Part shown: one piece after another, positions 51,999-56,346 of the stretch | How positions within the stretch are numbered: position 1 is the first letter of the stretch | How the letters are laid out: each line of letters starts with the position of its first letter | Source of the DNA: Kutzneria kofuensis | GTDB lineage: Bacteria; Actinomycetota; Actinomycetes; Mycobacteriales; Pseudonocardiaceae | Length of the DNA stretch: 64,000 nt | Assembly (NCBI RefSeq): GCF_014203355.1 | Contig: NZ_JACHIR010000001.1 | Location: 5,644,038 to 5,708,037 of the forward strand | Direction: 5' to 3' | Position numbers and translations under genes: made by a program | The notes under the pieces: model-generated | Told to the model about the DNA's origin: nothing | The model's database searches: none | Seen by the model: the letters and a program-made list of their open reading frames with translations, nothing else

Positions 51999-52775
51999 TC
52001 AGGTCGCCAGCCCCTGGGCGTCGAGGCGGTCGCGAAGGCGGGCGGCGAGGTCGGCGTGGCCGAAGGTGGCCAGCGTCTTCGCCAGCTGGTCGCCGAGCAG
52101 CGGGCGGTTCCACTCGTCGAGCTCGGCGAACAACTGCTCGGCGGCCGCCAGCAGCTGATCCTCCGCAGAAACCTCCGCCGGCGCCTCGGCGGGGCCGTGG
52201 ATCGCCGCGCTGAGCCGGGCGATCGGCTCGATCATGCCCACGGCCTGCGCCACCTGCTGCGGATTGCGCGATAACCACCATGCGACCGCGCGGTTGGGAT
52301 CGGTGAGCATCTCGGCGGTGAACTCGCACTCCCGCCGCTCCATCTCCTTCTCGTGTTGCCACACCTGCAGCTTGCGCTGCAGGTCGTGCCGCTGGTGGAC
52401 GGCTTGCAGATCCGCGTCGTCGACGCTGACGACAACATCTGTCGCCCACACGCGGAGTTGACCGTTCAACTCGTGGCAGGGCACGCCCAATTGTGTCGCC
52501 AGCTGAGCCTGCAACGCCGCACCCCCAGTCAGTTCCACGGCTGCCGCGACCGGCATGACCTGTCGGAGGATTCCGTGCTTGGCGGCTTCCAGCGGCGCGG
52601 GATGGGCTTGTGCGCCGGGGTGGGTCAGCTGGTGCAGCACCGTGCAGGAGAACCAGAAGTGGTAATCCTGGGTCGCACTGCGCACCGGCACGTTCTCGAT
52701 GCGGCCCTGCCATGTGGGCGGCATGACGTACGGCTCGGCCGTGGCCAGGAACTTGGCGAAGAAACCGCGGGCCAT
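51999..52775 (-). CDS. Fourth gene of the cyclase module, unknown function
   Basis: 258 residues, no signal peptide or membrane segment. I do not recognise a family with confidence. The first half is mixed alpha/beta (WFSCTVLHQLTH, VPVAAAVELTGGAALQAQL, RVWATDVVVSVDDADLQAV), then a helix-rich region that is highly charged (HDLQRKLQVWQHEKEMERRE) and a C-terminal alpha region. The order (beta core followed by charged helix) is loosely SPFH-like, a weak resemblance. ATG 52775 with gggagga in the end of the preceding gene, four bases away. It completes the four-gene unit and should act with the ATPase. Confidence 0.7.
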   Translation of the reverse strand: MARGFFAKFLATAEPYVMPPTWQGRIENVPVRSATQDYHFWFSCTVLHQLTHPGAQAHPAPLEAAKHGILRQVMPVAAAVELTGGAALQAQLATQLGVPCHELNGQLRVWATDVVVSVDDADLQAVHQRHDLQRKLQVWQHEKEMERRECEFTAEMLTDPNRAVAWWLSRNPQQVAQAVGMIEPIARLSAAIHGPAEAPAEVSAEDQLLAAAEQLFAELDEWNRPLLGDQLAKTLATFGHADLAARLRDRLDAQGLAT

Positions 52776-52779
52776 GGGG

Positions 52780-54774
52780 TCATTCCTCCCTGCCCGACGC
52801 CGGACGCGCCAGGCCCATCGCAGAATCGATCTTGGTGTCGAGCAGTAGCCCGGCCTGGCGTCGAGAAGCCGGGTCCTCGGCGACCCACGCCACGGCGGCC
52901 GCCCGCAGCCGGCCGAGCAGAGCGGTTCGCCCGTCGCAGGCACTGACCAGCAGGTCCAGCCCGATCTCGGTGGAGGCGGACAGCCACGCCCATAGCAACG
53001 GGACGCTCTCCGGCCGGGCCAGCGCCCCACGCCAACCAACCCTGATCAGGTCGAGCTCCGTCGCGCCGTACGGCAGTGTCGGGTCGACGAGCCGGCCGAA
53101 CAACTCGACGTCGCGGCCGGGTTCGCCGTTGTCGAGCCTGGCCACCACCCGTCCGAGCAGCCACGACCGGGTCTGGGGACCCGACACCAGCCGCAGCAGT
53201 GCCTCGACCGCCGCCAATCCGATGGTCTCGTCGCGGTGTCGGGTCAGATGGTGCAGCCGAACCATGGCGGCCTCGGGATAGGCCGGTCCGAGCACGTTCT
53301 CGCACACGGACATGACCACGCCGGCCAACCGCGGCGAAACCGATCCGTCTCGTGCCCAGGCATAGACCCTTCGCCGGAACTGCCATCCCGAGGCGGGATC
53401 CAGCACAGCAGTGCCCAGCACCTGCACCGCGAGCGCGGTGGTCCTGTTGTCGCCGACGCTGGCCCAGCCCCGCGCGGCCTGCAGGAGGTCGTTCACCATG
53501 CCGTGCCGCAGTGACAACGTGGTGAACCGGTCGGCGAGCACGGTCCGATCGCCGTCGACCAAGCTCGTCCTGGCCAGTCGCGGCAACTGCTCGATCCAGC
53601 GGGCCAGCATCGACCGTAACCCGGGGAAGTTCCGCCACACGTGGTTCAGCACCGCATCCGCGTAGCGCGGTCGGGAGAACCGCACCCGGCCGTCGACGAT
53701 CTCGGCGCCGATGTCGGCCAGCCGCTCGGTGAGCCCTGGCCGTGCGAACGGGTGCTCCTCGACGTCCGGGAACTCCAGCAGCCTGGCCAGCTCCCGATCC
53801 GCCTCGAACACCGCGTCCGACGGGCAGCCGGACAGCAACGCCGCGGACAGCAGCAGGCTGCGCCACGCGGCATCGGGGTGCTCGGCGAACGTCTCGGTCA
53901 GCTCGGCCGACCAGTTGGACAGCGCGCCGAGCGCGACTACGAGCGACTCGTCCCAGCCGCCGGTCGTGGCCATGGACTCCGCGACGAGGTGGGCAAGTTC
54001 AGCCAGCTCGCCGGCTCGCGGATGGTCGAACATCGCCGTCAGCAACGGGTTCGAGCCGCCCGGCGACACGCCGCGCGCCTTCAGGTGGAACTCGAAGACG
54101 TCGCGGGCCAGTCTCGGCGTCAGCAGGAGCTCGACCCGAAGCCCGCGCAGATTCGAGCTGGGCACCTGACGCTCGTAGTCCGGCAGCACCACGGCCAGCA
54201 GGCTGCCGACCTCGGCGACGCGGTCCACCAGCGCGCCCAGTTCCCGGATCGCCCTCAGGTAGTCAGGAAGGTCCACTGTGGACAGGTCGAGCAGCAACGA
54301 CTCGCCCTGACGCACCTGGTCCGTGTCGAGCACGGGCTGGCCCTCGTCGCCGAGGTCGATGTCGACCTGCCTGATCCGGCTCGCACCGCCGACGCGGTGC
54401 AGGAGCATCGCGGCGGCGGTCAGCCGGCCGGCGCCGGCCGGCCCGGCGATCAACACCGACTGCTTCTCGGCGAGAACCGCCTGTGCCTGAACGAATCCGT
54501 CCGGCTCGACGAAGCACGCGGCGAGCGCGGAGAGCCTGCGCGTCGAGAACCACTGCATGGCACGAACACGACGACCGGCCTCTTGGCCGGCGATCTGCAG
54601 GACCAGCATGGTGTCGGCGGTGAACTTGTCGCCCGCCACCTGGTCCGCGGACAGCTGATCGACCTCGCTGTTGGTGACCTGCGCACCGCTGCCCGTCAGC
54701 ACAGGGCCCTCGCTGGCGCCGATCACGGTTCCCGAGTTGTGGTCGATGTCGTTCAGCTCGAACCGCGAGGTCAT
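52780..54774 (-). CDS. Large STAND-like ATPase with N-terminal glycine-rich motif and helical repeats
   Basis: 664 residues. Residues 5-38 carry the motif NxGTVIGxxxGPVxTG that also ends the cyclase-like protein. A helical segment follows, then a variant P-loop GPAGAGRLT at residues 111-119, where the usual GK[ST] lysine is Arg. Such GR-type loops occur, to my knowledge, in actinobacterial novel-STAND ATPases. A central ATPase-like region includes ESLLLDLSTVDLPDYL (possible Walker B). The remaining 350 residues are Leu/Ala/Arg-rich helices compatible with ARM/HEAT-type repeats. ATG 54774 overlaps the cyclase stop (ATGA). Function unknown; a sensor or scaffold is inferred. Confidence 0.75.
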   Translation of the reverse strand: MTSRFELNDIDHNSGTVIGASEGPVLTGSGAQVTNSEVDQLSADQVAGDKFTADTMLVLQIAGQEAGRRVRAMQWFSTRRLSALAACFVEPDGFVQAQAVLAEKQSVLIAGPAGAGRLTAAAMLLHRVGGASRIRQVDIDLGDEGQPVLDTDQVRQGESLLLDLSTVDLPDYLRAIRELGALVDRVAEVGSLLAVVLPDYERQVPSSNLRGLRVELLLTPRLARDVFEFHLKARGVSPGGSNPLLTAMFDHPRAGELAELAHLVAESMATTGGWDESLVVALGALSNWSAELTETFAEHPDAAWRSLLLSAALLSGCPSDAVFEADRELARLLEFPDVEEHPFARPGLTERLADIGAEIVDGRVRFSRPRYADAVLNHVWRNFPGLRSMLARWIEQLPRLARTSLVDGDRTVLADRFTTLSLRHGMVNDLLQAARGWASVGDNRTTALAVQVLGTAVLDPASGWQFRRRVYAWARDGSVSPRLAGVVMSVCENVLGPAYPEAAMVRLHHLTRHRDETIGLAAVEALLRLVSGPQTRSWLLGRVVARLDNGEPGRDVELFGRLVDPTLPYGATELDLIRVGWRGALARPESVPLLWAWLSASTEIGLDLLVSACDGRTALLGRLRAAAVAWVAEDPASRRQAGLLLDTKIDSAMGLARPASGREE

Positions 54775-55598
54775 TTGCGCCCACTCCTCTTGTCGCGCAT
54801 GACTGTTCCGTGCACGGTTGAGCCATTGACCTGGACGCCGTCGCCGGTCTGCACGGGTCCCTGGTTGCTGCCGATCACCGTGCCCCGGTTGCCACTGATG
54901 TCACGGATTTGCACCGACGCCGGTTCCGCCGGCTCGGTTGCGTGCTCGGCGACCTGGGGCGGCTCGGGCAGCGTGAACCCGTTCGCCAGCAGGTCGCCCG
55001 ACGGCAGCGGCACATGCAGGTACGCGCTGCCCTCGTAGGACTTCACCTTGACCGGCGCCTCGACGAACTGGTCTTCGCGCAGTTCGGAGTACCCGCCGGC
55101 GACGACGTCCTCGTACACCCGGGCCGAGATGATCGTGGCCACCAGCGTGACCTGCGGGTTGGATCGGGCGAGCAGGTCGCGTACGGGCGCGGAGTCCAGC
55201 AGTCGGTGGGTCTCGATCCGGGCCGCCCCCTGGCCGTCCCGGATCCGTGGGCCCGCGTCATCGGTCAGTGGGCCGACACTGAGGCTCACCCGCATCCGTT
55301 GCGGTGCACCGGTCCGCCTGCCCACGTCGGCGAGCTCCTGTTGCAGCGTCGAGGAAAATCCATCGACCAGCACCGGCAGATGCTTGGTGCGGAAGCCCAT
55401 CGCGTAACCGTCACCCGTGTGGTCGGTGAACTTGGCCTCGGCCCACAGGTAGCCGTGGCCCATGCGCTGGAACGTGTCGCGCAACAGCTCGGGGATCCGG
55501 CCGCCGATCACGCCCTGTTCGGCGGCGGGCACGCCGCTGAAGTCCTTGAGATCGACGACGAGCATCGCGCGGTAGGGCGGCAAACTCCGGTGTGGCAT
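54771..55598 (-). CDS. Class III nucleotide-cyclase-like protein with C-terminal glycine-rich motif
   Basis: 275 residues from ATG 55598, six bases after an AGGAGG site; ATG 55604 lies too close to it. The first 200 residues look like a class III cyclase catalytic domain: MLVVDLKDFSG with metal Asp D16 and TGDGYAMGF with D63, RVSLSVGPL, and AARIETHRLLD where the Asn/Arg pair is expected; the Asn is not obvious, so activity and product (cAMP, cGMP or a pyrimidine) are open. A linker and then, at residues 229-266, the motif GNRGTVIGSNQGPVQTGDG follow. Its stop overlaps the ATPase start. It is preceded by a CRP-like box. Confidence 0.75.
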   Translation of the reverse strand: MPHRSLPPYRAMLVVDLKDFSGVPAAEQGVIGGRIPELLRDTFQRMGHGYLWAEAKFTDHTGDGYAMGFRTKHLPVLVDGFSSTLQQELADVGRRTGAPQRMRVSLSVGPLTDDAGPRIRDGQGAARIETHRLLDSAPVRDLLARSNPQVTLVATIISARVYEDVVAGGYSELREDQFVEAPVKVKSYEGSAYLHVPLPSGDLLANGFTLPEPPQVAEHATEPAEPASVQIRDISGNRGTVIGSNQGPVQTGDGVQVNGSTVHGTVMRDKRSGRK

Positions 55599-55658
55599 CG
55601 ACATCCTCCTGTTCGGACGAGGTTGGCGTTGAGCCTCGACCACGCCAGGAGGCGTCGT

Positions 55659-55674
55659 TGTCCGTCGACGGACA
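55659..55674. promoter_or_regulatory. 16-bp perfect palindrome upstream of the cyclase-like gene
   Basis: tgtccgtcgacggaca, a perfect 16-bp palindrome without spacer, 61 bases before the cyclase-like start. Operator-like; it could be bound by a second dimeric regulator. Confidence 0.45.
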
Positions 55675-55681
55675 GTTACGC

Positions 55682-55697
55682 GGTGATAGGGATCACA
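55682..55697 (-). promoter_or_regulatory. CRP-like box
   Basis: On the minus strand the sequence is TGTGATCCCTATCACC: TGTGA-N6-TCACC, one base off the CRP consensus TGTGA-N6-TCACA. It straddles the stop codon of the Crp-family gene, 84 bases before the cyclase-like start, and is the natural target for the adjacent regulator. Confidence 0.65.
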
Positions 55698-56346
55698 CTC
55701 GTTCGGAGGTGTACCGCAGCAGCCGTTCGGGATCGGCGACGGTCAGTCGTGGTCCCGGCCCGAGCACGCCTTCGCGCCGCAGGTCGGCGACGAACGAGCT
55801 GACCGAGCTGCGTGCCACGCCGAGCGCCGTCGCGATCTGCTCCTGTGACAACGGGATCAGCATGGGATCGGCCAGCTCGGGCCCGGCGAGCATGACGAGT
55901 TCGGCCAGCAGCCGTGCGATTCGCTGTGGCGGCTTGAAGTGCACCAGCTGTACCCGGAACGGCACGCTTTCGGACAGCTTGAGCACGACGTAGTCGGTGA
56001 GCTTCCGGGCCGCGGGCAGCCGGTCGAACGCCTCCACGGTCAGGTAATGCGCGTAGCAGTCGTCAAGGGCGACGACCGATGCGCTGCGCACGCCACCGCC
56101 ACCGTGCGCAGCCATCTCCCCGACCAGGTCGCCGGCCGCGCGCAGCGCCACGAGCAGGCGTTGCTCGCCGCCTTGCTCCGAACGCAGCACCTGCACCCGG
56201 CCACCGGTCAGCGCGAGCAAGTAGCCACCGGAATAGCCCTGCCGCATGAGTTCGGAGCCGCGTGGATACTGACGGGGATGACCCGCCGCCAAGAGCGCGG
56301 CCCACTCCTCGTCGCCGATCAGAGCTCGGAATCCCCCATGGGGCAC
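55693..56346 (-). CDS. Crp/Fnr-family transcriptional regulator
   Basis: 217 residues. Cyclic-nucleotide-binding beta barrel with the phosphate-binding cassette signature G76-E77 (GEMAAHGGGG) and R87-S88-A89, matching residues that contact the nucleotide in CRP, so it can plausibly bind one. A long dimerisation helix (LTDYVVLKLSESVPFRVQLV) and a C-terminal Crp-type helix-turn-helix (LSQEQIATALGVARSSVSSFVADLRREG, about 166-194) follow. GTG 56346, 11 bases after the adh stop. It is the regulator of a module that also carries a cyclase-like gene. Confidence 0.9.
   Translation of the reverse strand: MPHGGFRALIGDEEWAALLAAGHPRQYPRGSELMRQGYSGGYLLALTGGRVQVLRSEQGGEQRLLVALRAAGDLVGEMAAHGGGGVRSASVVALDDCYAHYLTVEAFDRLPAARKLTDYVVLKLSESVPFRVQLVHFKPPQRIARLLAELVMLAGPELADPMLIPLSQEQIATALGVARSSVSSFVADLRREGVLGPGPRLTVADPERLLRYTSERV

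What the first reader, a model, noticed from the sequence alone, without database searches (positions are those of the whole stretch)
51999..56346. Four-gene Crp / cyclase-like / STAND-like ATPase / unknown module between glnD and ffh
Seen: four minus-strand genes separated by at most about 95 bases or overlapping, encoding a Crp/Fnr regulator with intact nucleotide-contact residues, a class III cyclase-like protein, a large ATPase with a GR-type P-loop and helical repeats, and an unrecognised 258-residue protein. Known: Crp proteins respond to cyclic nucleotides; STAND ATPases act in signalling and conflict. Inference: the genes form a self-contained second-messenger circuit, possibly an antiphage or stress system related in logic to Pycsar or CBASS but with different parts. 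I do not recognise this set as a described system.
Basis: partly seen in the sequence, partly recalled or inferred. Interest (0 to 1): 0.85.

Follow-up and report, generated by a model that had tools for sequence, protein, structure and literature searches.

The report
STAND-coupled cyclase and CRP signalling module
Four neighbouring genes in a soil actinomycete form a patchily distributed, fast-evolving signalling unit in which a sensor protein and a cyclic-nucleotide-type enzyme carry matching tails, and a dedicated gene switch comes with a matching DNA site in front of the enzyme gene; it looks like an immune-type alarm wired to a second messenger.

Summary
The block is a recurrent module, crp-cyclase-STAND-SPFH: 23 of 23 loci found with the cyclase alone also carry CRP and STAND genes, 22 the fourth gene, whose fold is stomatin/SPFH-like. 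The cyclase has a class III fold with both metal-binding Asp in 77 of 81 relatives. New here: (1) the cyclase tail and the adjacent STAND N-terminus share a G/N-rich motif that differs between loci but matches within them (cognate sum 4367, permuted 2028 sd 80, n=64; other ends show nothing), as in paired amyloid-signalling motifs; (2) in 19 loci a TIR protein replaces the cyclase, and CRP is then absent (0 of 19, versus 64 of 67 with the cyclase); (3) a CRP-type dyad, TGTCC-N6-GGACA, lies in the crp-cyclase gap (34 sites in 21,760 nt, 2 in 935,937 nt elsewhere). Best reading: STAND activation clusters a nucleotide cyclase through matched tails, and the product is read by the module's own CRP. 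Amyloid formation, the product and an antiphage role are inferred, not shown.

The parts
55693..56346 (-). CRP/FNR-family transcription factor with the cyclic-nucleotide contacts Gly76-Glu77 and Arg87-Ser88 and a Crp-type HTH whose recognition helix reads R-S (E. coli CRP has R-E there, recalled)
   Evidence: Pfam; CAP/CRP best PDB hits; residue counts over 67 relatives
55682..55697 (-). Dyad 1, CRP-type TGTGA-N6-TCACC, overlapping the crp stop codon
   Evidence: sequence; TGTGA-N6-TCAC exact in 16 and with at most 1 mismatch in 42 of 69 crp-cyclase loci, 1 of 20 upstream of TIR genes
55659..55674 (-). Dyad 2, TGTCC-N6-GGACA (here TGTCCGTCGACGGACA), starting 23 nt after the start of dyad 1; proposed operator of the module's own CRP
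   Evidence: exact in 35 and with at most 1 mismatch in 50 of 69 crp-cyclase loci, 0 of 20 upstream of TIR genes; 34 in 21,760 nt versus 2 in 935,937 nt
54771..55604 (-). Class III nucleotide-cyclase-fold protein (start may be 55598); residues about 1-215 are the cyclase-like domain
   Evidence: AlphaFold model, mean pLDDT 76.8; all 50 listed PDB matches are cyclases, best Ma1120 E 7.9e-7; profile hit Ma1120 E 0.005; D18 81/81, D65 77/81
54813..54911 (-). Pairing motif in the C-terminal tail of the cyclase, QIRDISGNRGTVIGSNQGPVQTGDGVQVNGSTV
   Evidence: local alignment to the STAND N-terminus, score 94, best of 64 in row and column; residues 237-267 have pLDDT below 50
54661..54759 (-). Pairing motif at the N-terminus of the STAND protein, ELNDIDHNSGTVIGASEGPVLTGSGAQVTNSEV
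52780..54774 (-). nSTAND3-like protein with a probable helical-repeat C-terminal region; P-loop GPAGAGRLT (Arg in place of Lys)
   Evidence: nSTAND3 E 1.2e-4, 14 of 20 members; profile hits to designed and HEAT-like repeat chains (4rzp E 4.8e-5); P-loop counts
51999..52775 (-). SPFH/stomatin-fold protein; the Kutzneria form lacks the N-terminal hydrophobic segment seen by eye in 13 of 18 homologues
   Evidence: AlphaFold mean pLDDT 85.1, pTM 0.56; Foldseek hits erlin, vault, stomatin, HflK/C; homologue N-termini

Best explanation
The block is a self-contained signalling module. (i) The STAND protein senses an unknown trigger through its helical repeats and oligomerises [inferred from family]. 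(ii) Its N-terminal motif nucleates a homotypic, probably cross-beta, assembly with the matching C-terminal tail of the neighbouring cyclase [matched motif shown; assembly inferred]. (iii) This brings cyclase domains together; class III cyclases work as dimers (general knowledge), so clustering switches on synthesis of a cyclic nucleotide [fold and metal ligands shown; activity inferred]. (iv) The nucleotide binds the module's CRP, which acts on the dyad in front of cyclase-STAND-SPFH to amplify or reset the response [contact residues and dyad shown; binding and sign inferred]. (v) The SPFH protein serves as scaffold or final actor, at the membrane in relatives that have a hydrophobic segment [fold shown; role inferred]. 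In sister loci the cyclase plus CRP is exchanged for a TIR protein with the same kind of tail, so STAND-SPFH is the constant chassis and the enzyme is the plug-in. The likely purpose is an immune or programmed-death type response [inferred].
For: Co-occurrence: 23 of 23 cyclase-found loci have CRP and STAND genes (CRP on the other strand in 3), 22 of 23 SPFH; 48 of 64 cyclases with STAND downstream in 150 family genomes. Motif pairing: 4367 versus 2028 (sd 80), none of 20,000 permutations as high, 64 non-redundant loci; z 28.7 for tail against STAND N-terminus (63 loci), but -0.9, 1.8 and -0.7 for STAND C-terminus and SPFH N- and C-termini. Effector swap: Pfam TIR_2 above cut-off in 7 of 8 candidates tested; TIR directly upstream of STAND in 19 of 23 fetched cyclase-less STAND loci; CRP with the cyclase in 60 of 67 (same strand) plus 4 (opposite), with TIR 0 of 19. 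Operator. Active site: D18 81/81, D65 77/81; CRP pocket E77 67/67, R87 66/67. Patchiness and fast evolution: block present beside glnD in 4 of 7 Kutzneria genomes, not found there in 3; against three relatives flank proteins 91-99% identical, block proteins 57-87%.
Against: Nothing biochemical is shown. The canonical substrate Lys and transition-state Asn were not recognised in the cyclase, and the possible transition-state Arg129 is Arg in only 51 of 81. At the P-loop Lys position 61 of 86 STAND relatives have Arg, 1 has Lys and 24 something else, so ATP-driven switching is uncertain. Five of 64 pairs score below 25 (L087, L100, L130, L148, L150; L130 has hardly any N-terminus), four more rank 17th or lower in their row (L101, L102, L113, L126), and the cognate is best in its row in only 33 and in its column in 40 of 64. 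Dyad 2 is lacking, even with 1 mismatch, in 19 of 69 crp-cyclase loci. 14 of 64 strong cyclases lack both partners. PADLOC showed only TIR, PDC-S73, TPR, mad8 and CRP-domain matches, and no defence-island test was done. The other nine exact dyads of the own genome show no obvious regulon, and in two Kutzneria genomes (G004, G003) exact dyads are little commoner than the reversed control (11 versus 10, 12 versus 7).
Confidence: 0.6

Rival explanations
1. The matched tails are ordinary docking segments (a specific small beta-structure or heterodimer) that hold the cyclase on the STAND protein; no amyloid, no templating. The rest of the circuit is as above.
For: The pairing statistics prove specificity, not the type of assembly. 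Most motifs lack the RHIM-like core: [IVL]Q[IVLA]G in 8 of 64 tails (shuffles mean 1.1, maximum 6 in 1000) and 3 of 64 STAND N-termini, the latter not above shuffles.
Against: The segments are short, G/N-rich, low-confidence in the model, and sit at the termini used by known bacterial amyloid motifs. Six of ten tailed cyclases without a STAND hit beside them carry the core, e.g. TAIQVG (two of the six, L106 and L111, are near-identical), close to the published RHIM core G-(I,V)-Q-(I,V)-G. The two partners resemble each other rather than being complementary, which suits homotypic stacking.
Confidence: 0.3
2. The cyclase domain is catalytically dead and acts as a nucleotide-binding switch or partner; the CRP responds to the cell's general cAMP.
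For: Canonical Lys and Asn not recognised, Arg129 not universal; dyad 1 is a canonical CRP-type site that a global CRP could bind; Kaur et al. report inactive cyclase domains in related conflict systems (PMC7159879, passages).
Against: Both metal Asp are kept across diverged relatives (77 of 81), and CRP goes with the cyclase and not with the TIR.
Confidence: 0.25
3. The module is a developmental or stress regulator, not an immune system.
For: In Kutzneria it sits beside housekeeping genes (glnD, ffh); CRP-cyclase circuits are common in actinomycete physiology (general knowledge).
Against: Patchy presence at one site and faster divergence than the flanks; TIR swap; nSTAND3 is the NTPase type of the antiphage protein Avs5 (PMC12931631, passages).
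Confidence: 0.35
4. Dyad 2 is an RNA hairpin (terminator or attenuator) and not a protein site.
For: CTGTCCG-N4-CGGACA(G) can fold as a stem shortly after the crp stop codon. The near-invariance of its half-sites in the 53 aligned sites is partly by construction, as sites were chosen with at most 1 mismatch.
Against: Half-site and spacer lengths match CRP-type dyads (recalled); start-to-start distance to dyad 1 is 22-24 nt in 24 of 30 loci where both were placed with at most 1 mismatch each; no run of four T in the next 20 nt in 53 of 53; it tracks with crp and is absent upstream of TIR genes.
Confidence: 0.08

Closest known systems
Bacterial amyloid signalling (BASS) NLR-effector pairs (Dyrka et al. 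2020, itself not held; seen through PMC7889193, PMC8086366, PMC7885112 and PMC12261475, passages)
   Same: Adjacent or overlapping genes; NLR/STAND N-terminus and effector C-terminus share a short motif; filamentous actinobacteria; TIR among the partners; RHIM-like core in some tails here
   Different: The usual partner there is the Bell domain, less often CHAT or TIR; a nucleotide cyclase is not named in the passages read. Here a CRP, its operator and an SPFH protein come with it
Pycsar
   Same: Class III-fold cyclase plus a cyclic-nucleotide receptor
   Different: The receptor is a CRP transcription factor, not a TIR or membrane effector (recalled definition); the cyclase has no PADLOC hit; a STAND protein is added
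VMAP / EAD-coupled conflict systems (Kaur et al. 2020, PMC7159879, passages)
   Same: cNMP cyclases, CRP-like regulators, Band-7 domains and matched adaptor domains in adjacent genes occur there
   Different: The four genes here hold no VMAP, vWA or MoxR protein (neighbours not scanned); pairing is through short tails, not folded EADs; this gene set was not seen in the passages read
Avs5 (nSTAND3 protein with Sir2 effector; PMC12931631, passages)
   Same: nSTAND3 domain with C-terminal helical repeats
   Different: Effector fused and Sir2-like; Walker A Lys essential there, Arg in most relatives here
Predicted cyclase-like proteins near cyclic-nucleotide-binding genes (Ramakrishnan et al. 2016, PMC4886424, abstract and passages)
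   Same: Divergent class III cyclases in Actinobacteria with conserved neighbours, including cyclic nucleotide-binding domains
   Different: Not tested whether that DUF2652-based set includes this family; no STAND, NACHT or ATPase neighbour found in its text by the terms searched

Membership tests
NLR-effector amyloid signalosome (BASS type) | Matching motif at sensor N-terminus and effector C-terminus in adjacent genes | tested here: met
NLR-effector amyloid signalosome (BASS type) | Motif belongs to a published BASS1-10 profile | not tested
   profiles not on hand; only the RHIM-like core was scanned (8 of 64 tails, 3 of 64 STAND N-termini)
NLR-effector amyloid signalosome (BASS type) | Motif forms amyloid and templates the partner | not testable with these tools
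   needs peptides
Class III nucleotide cyclase | Cyclase fold | tested here: met
   E 7.9e-7 to Ma1120
Class III nucleotide cyclase | Two metal-binding Asp | tested here: met
   D18 81/81, D65 77/81; positions assigned by profile alignment and recalled motifs
Class III nucleotide cyclase | Substrate-specifying Lys and transition-state Asn/Arg | tested here: inconclusive
   Lys and Asn not recognised; Arg129 51/81, Arg134 77/81
CRP/FNR regulator | cNMP-binding domain with Glu and Arg contacts, Crp HTH | tested here: met
STAND NTPase | nSTAND domain by profile | tested here: inconclusive
   window protein below the curated cut-off; nSTAND3 in 14 of 20 members at E up to 1, best 1.9e-7
STAND NTPase | Walker A Lys | tested here: not met
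   Arg in the window protein and in 61 of 86 relatives, Lys in 1 (L142), other in 24
SPFH/stomatin fold | SPFH domain followed by a long helix | tested here: met
   4 PDB matches at E up to 0.001, all erlin, vault or stomatin; TM-score low over the whole chain (0.28), up to 0.56 against isolated stomatin SPFH domains; Pfam silent
Pycsar | PycC cyclase with PycTIR/PycTM effector | tested here: not met
   cyclase has no PADLOC hit; CRP hits PycTIR (6.6e-8, residues 16-110) and PycC (1e-4) models
CBASS | CD-NTase | tested here: not met
   cyclase is class III fold; no CD-NTase among the PADLOC hits of the four

The most novel reading that the evidence does not exclude
An NLR-like sensor switches on a second-messenger enzyme by prion-like templating: each locus has its own private motif, so several insulated channels could run in one cell, and the messenger is read by a module-owned CRP at a module-owned operator, giving a transcriptionally self-controlling immune circuit whose enzyme can be swapped for a TIR domain.
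Probability: 0.42. Interest if true: 0.9.

Novelty: new variant of a known kind. Interest (0 to 1): 0.8.

Why it matters
It would join two themes studied apart, amyloid-type NLR signalling and cyclic-nucleotide immune signalling, and place a transcription factor with a recognisable DNA site at the output. The site, the swap with TIR and the private motif pairs each make a clear prediction that a small laboratory can test. It also gives a handle on what the many diverged cyclase-like proteins of actinomycetes may respond to.

Tried and rejected
Pfam, NCBIfam and PADLOC on the four proteins gave solid names only for CRP and a weak one for STAND. Guanylate_cyc Pfam model in the own genome: no match. 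PDB sequence search with the single cyclase: nothing useful; with the profile: Ma1120 E 0.005. PDB sequence search for the fourth protein: nothing; the fold search gave SPFH. A -10 element (TANNNT) near dyad 2 was sought in 53 loci: none in the 70 nt downstream, one in the 40 nt upstream; so activator versus repressor stays open. A regulon from the other exact dyads in the own genome: nine other sites, three inside and six between genes by my own gene caller, neighbours of mixed kinds; no regulon claimed. Tandem-dyad pattern with one fixed spacing in viral contigs: 0. Plasmids: cyclase relatives on 10 of 72,556 records, Streptomyces 9, Embleya 1, not followed further. A crude hydrophobicity count for SPFH membrane segments gave 37 of 84; the script's placing of the N-terminus is rough, so I do not use it. 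Literature searches showed no description of this gene set in their listings or in the passages read; subscription papers, notably Dyrka 2020, are not held, so absence from print is not established.

Rows dropped: the pairing test used 64 of 86 loci after removing effectors at about 60% identity or more to one kept; one of its four follow-up tests used 63 and two used 54 of these. The first pairing run used 32 loci after skipping 3. Ten of 33 cyclase-less STAND hits were not fetched; of the 23 fetched, 4 had no recognised effector (L104, L105, L171, L173). The genome searches score only 7-15 candidates per genome, so counts are lower bounds. One search leaves out the window and repeated loci.
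Full report
What is there. The four minus-strand genes are present as described. They lie directly downstream of a zinc alcohol-dehydrogenase-like gene (ADH, name by eye; gap 11 nt), which is divergent from ffh, and are convergent with glnD. The genome shares its genus with Kutzneria records: handles listed as 'same genus' match named Kutzneria contigs by length (for example G002 and NZ_KK037166.1).

The parts. CRP matches CAP structures over its length (E 9.9e-25). The Glu and Arg that hold the cyclic nucleotide are kept in 67 and 66 of 67 relatives. The cyclase protein has no meaningful Pfam hit, but its predicted model (mean pLDDT 76.8, most of the tail below 60) finds only cyclases among the 50 listed PDB matches (Ma1120 E 7.9e-7; also an Anabaena uridylate cyclase). 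Metal ligands D18 and D65 are kept in 81 and 77 of 81 relatives. The large protein is nSTAND3-like in 14 of 20 members, with a probable helical-repeat part. At the P-loop position where Lys is usual, 61 of 86 relatives have Arg, 1 Lys and 24 something else. The fourth protein, silent in sequence libraries, has a stomatin/erlin/HflKC/vault-like SPFH fold (pLDDT 85.1; E 3.4e-4; whole-chain TM-score only 0.28, up to 0.56 to isolated SPFH domains). By eye, 13 of 18 homologues start with a hydrophobic segment that the Kutzneria forms lack; some of the other starts may be miscalled.

It is a unit. A scan with the cyclase alone returned 23 loci in Kutzneria, Goodfellowiella, Umezawaea, Streptoalloteichus, Actinokineospora, Amycolatopsis, Allokutzneria, Saccharothrix, Saccharopolyspora, Frankia, Pseudonocardia, Saccharomonospora and Streptomyces. 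All 23 also hold CRP and STAND genes (CRP on the other strand in 3: L088, L089, L091), and 22 the SPFH gene; in the remaining one, L090, the held stretch ends about 720 nt after the STAND gene. In 150 genomes of the family, 64 cyclase hits at E 6.9e-46 or better were found: 38 with STAND and SPFH downstream, 10 with STAND only, 2 with SPFH only and 14 with neither. Across the class, 18 of 296 genomes, the own one included, have the cyclase at E 1e-40 or better.

It is patchy and fast. Beside glnD the block is present in 4 of 7 Kutzneria genomes. In K. buriramensis the tblastn matches of GlnD and ADH end 28 nt apart with nothing of the block between; in two further genomes no block gene was found there, nor ADH. 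Against three Kutzneria relatives the flanking proteins are 91-99% identical and the block proteins 57-87%.

The tails match. The tail of the window's cyclase and the start of its STAND protein align as QIRDISGNRGTVIGSNQGPVQTGDGVQVNGSTV and ELNDIDHNSGTVIGASEGPVLTGSGAQVTNSEV. Other loci have different motifs, again matched within the locus, for example GAVGRVRDVGGTVITAPDGPVQTGDGQQI with GDIGEIGDVGGTVITAPSGPTQTGDGQQI (L034). Over 64 loci thinned to under about 60% effector identity, the cognate scores sum to 4367 against 2028 (sd 80, maximum 2467) for 20,000 permutations; the cognate is best in its row in 33 and in its column in 40 of 64. The same tails against other ends of the same loci give z of -0.9 (STAND C-terminus, 64), 1.8 (SPFH first 100, 54) and -0.7 (SPFH last 100, 54), versus 28.7 (63). 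Five pairs score below 25 (L087, L100, L130, L148, L150), and four more rank 17th or lower in their row (L101, L102, L113, L126). Six of ten tailed cyclases with no STAND hit beside them carry an [IVL]Q[IVLA]G core such as TAIQVG, resembling the published RHIM core (PMC7885112, passage); in the 64 paired loci the core is in 8 tails (shuffles 1.1, maximum 6) but in only 3 STAND N-termini, not above shuffles. Published bacterial pairs of this design use Bell, CHAT or TIR partners (PMC7889193, passages).

The enzyme can be swapped. Of 23 fetched STAND loci without the cyclase, 19 have instead a TIR protein in the same place (Pfam TIR_2 above cut-off in 7 of 8 tested; the others by a profile built from nine of them). 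Pairing among 13 non-redundant TIR loci is weaker but present (669 versus 459, sd 40, maximum of 20,000 permutations 648). CRP accompanies the cyclase in 60 of 67 loci on the same strand and in 4 on the other, but the TIR in 0 of 19. This links CRP to the cyclase's product rather than to the STAND-SPFH pair.

The operator. The crp-cyclase gap holds a dyad, TGTCC-N6-GGACA: where crp is on the same strand, 35 of 69 exact and 50 of 69 with at most one mismatch; for cyclases without it 1 and 3 of 12; upstream of TIR genes 0 of 20. In 66 distinct loci, the window excluded, 34 exact sites lie in 21,760 nt of upstream sequence and 2 in 935,937 nt elsewhere. A CRP-type dyad, TGTGA-N6-TCAC (at most 1 mismatch in 42 of 69, exact in 16), lies 22-24 nt upstream, start to start, in 24 of 30 loci where both were placed. 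The layout equals that of CRP sites (recalled), with changed inner bases. In the recognition helix the residue after the conserved Arg is Ser in 53 of 67 and never Glu, whereas E. coli CRP has Arg-Glu there (recalled). I propose that dyad 2 is read by the module's CRP and dyad 1 perhaps by the cell's global CRP; this is inference. In the window the dyads are at 55682-55697 and 55659-55674.

How it most likely works. Trigger, STAND assembly, templated clustering of the cyclase, cyclic nucleotide, CRP, control of its own operon; the SPFH protein acts as scaffold or actor. Shown: gene set, folds of two proteins, residue conservation, matched tails, swap, dyads. Inferred: assembly type, catalysis, nucleotide, sign of regulation, trigger and purpose.

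Novelty. Each element has a known relative, and the pairing principle is known. A nucleotide cyclase as the paired partner with its own CRP and operator was not found in the searches made, but key subscription papers are not held. Hence new variant of a known kind.

Noticed in passing
L069 (own genome G000:C1:3802000-3818000): A second crp-cyclase-STAND set in the same genome with a different matched motif and other downstream genes, suggesting insulated parallel channels.
   Followed up: partly
L104, 3809-6260 (own genome): A STAND plus SPFH pair with no cyclase or TIR found beside it, near small roadblock-like genes (recalled resemblance, not searched); a similar pair in L105.
   Followed up: no
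L146, L147, L158, L159: Cyclase copies with almost no tail (3-7 residues) near SPFH genes; D65 is lost in the L147 and L158 copies.
   Followed up: no
L041, 4578-8438: A cyclase with a RHIM-like tail (TAIQVGHLHGG) two genes from an NB-ARC/TPR protein beginning MIQAGTINGDIRL.
   Followed up: partly
L047 (G004): CRP and an exact dyad before a shortened cyclase lacking the metal-site region, with no STAND hit: probably a decayed copy.
   Followed up: no
L060, 11448-12860: A DUF4407 protein follows a related crp-cyclase-STAND set.
   Followed up: no
L038 and L075 downstream: A 137-residue gene that by eye resembles a Vsr-type endonuclease lies downstream of the block (recalled resemblance, not searched).
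   Followed up: no
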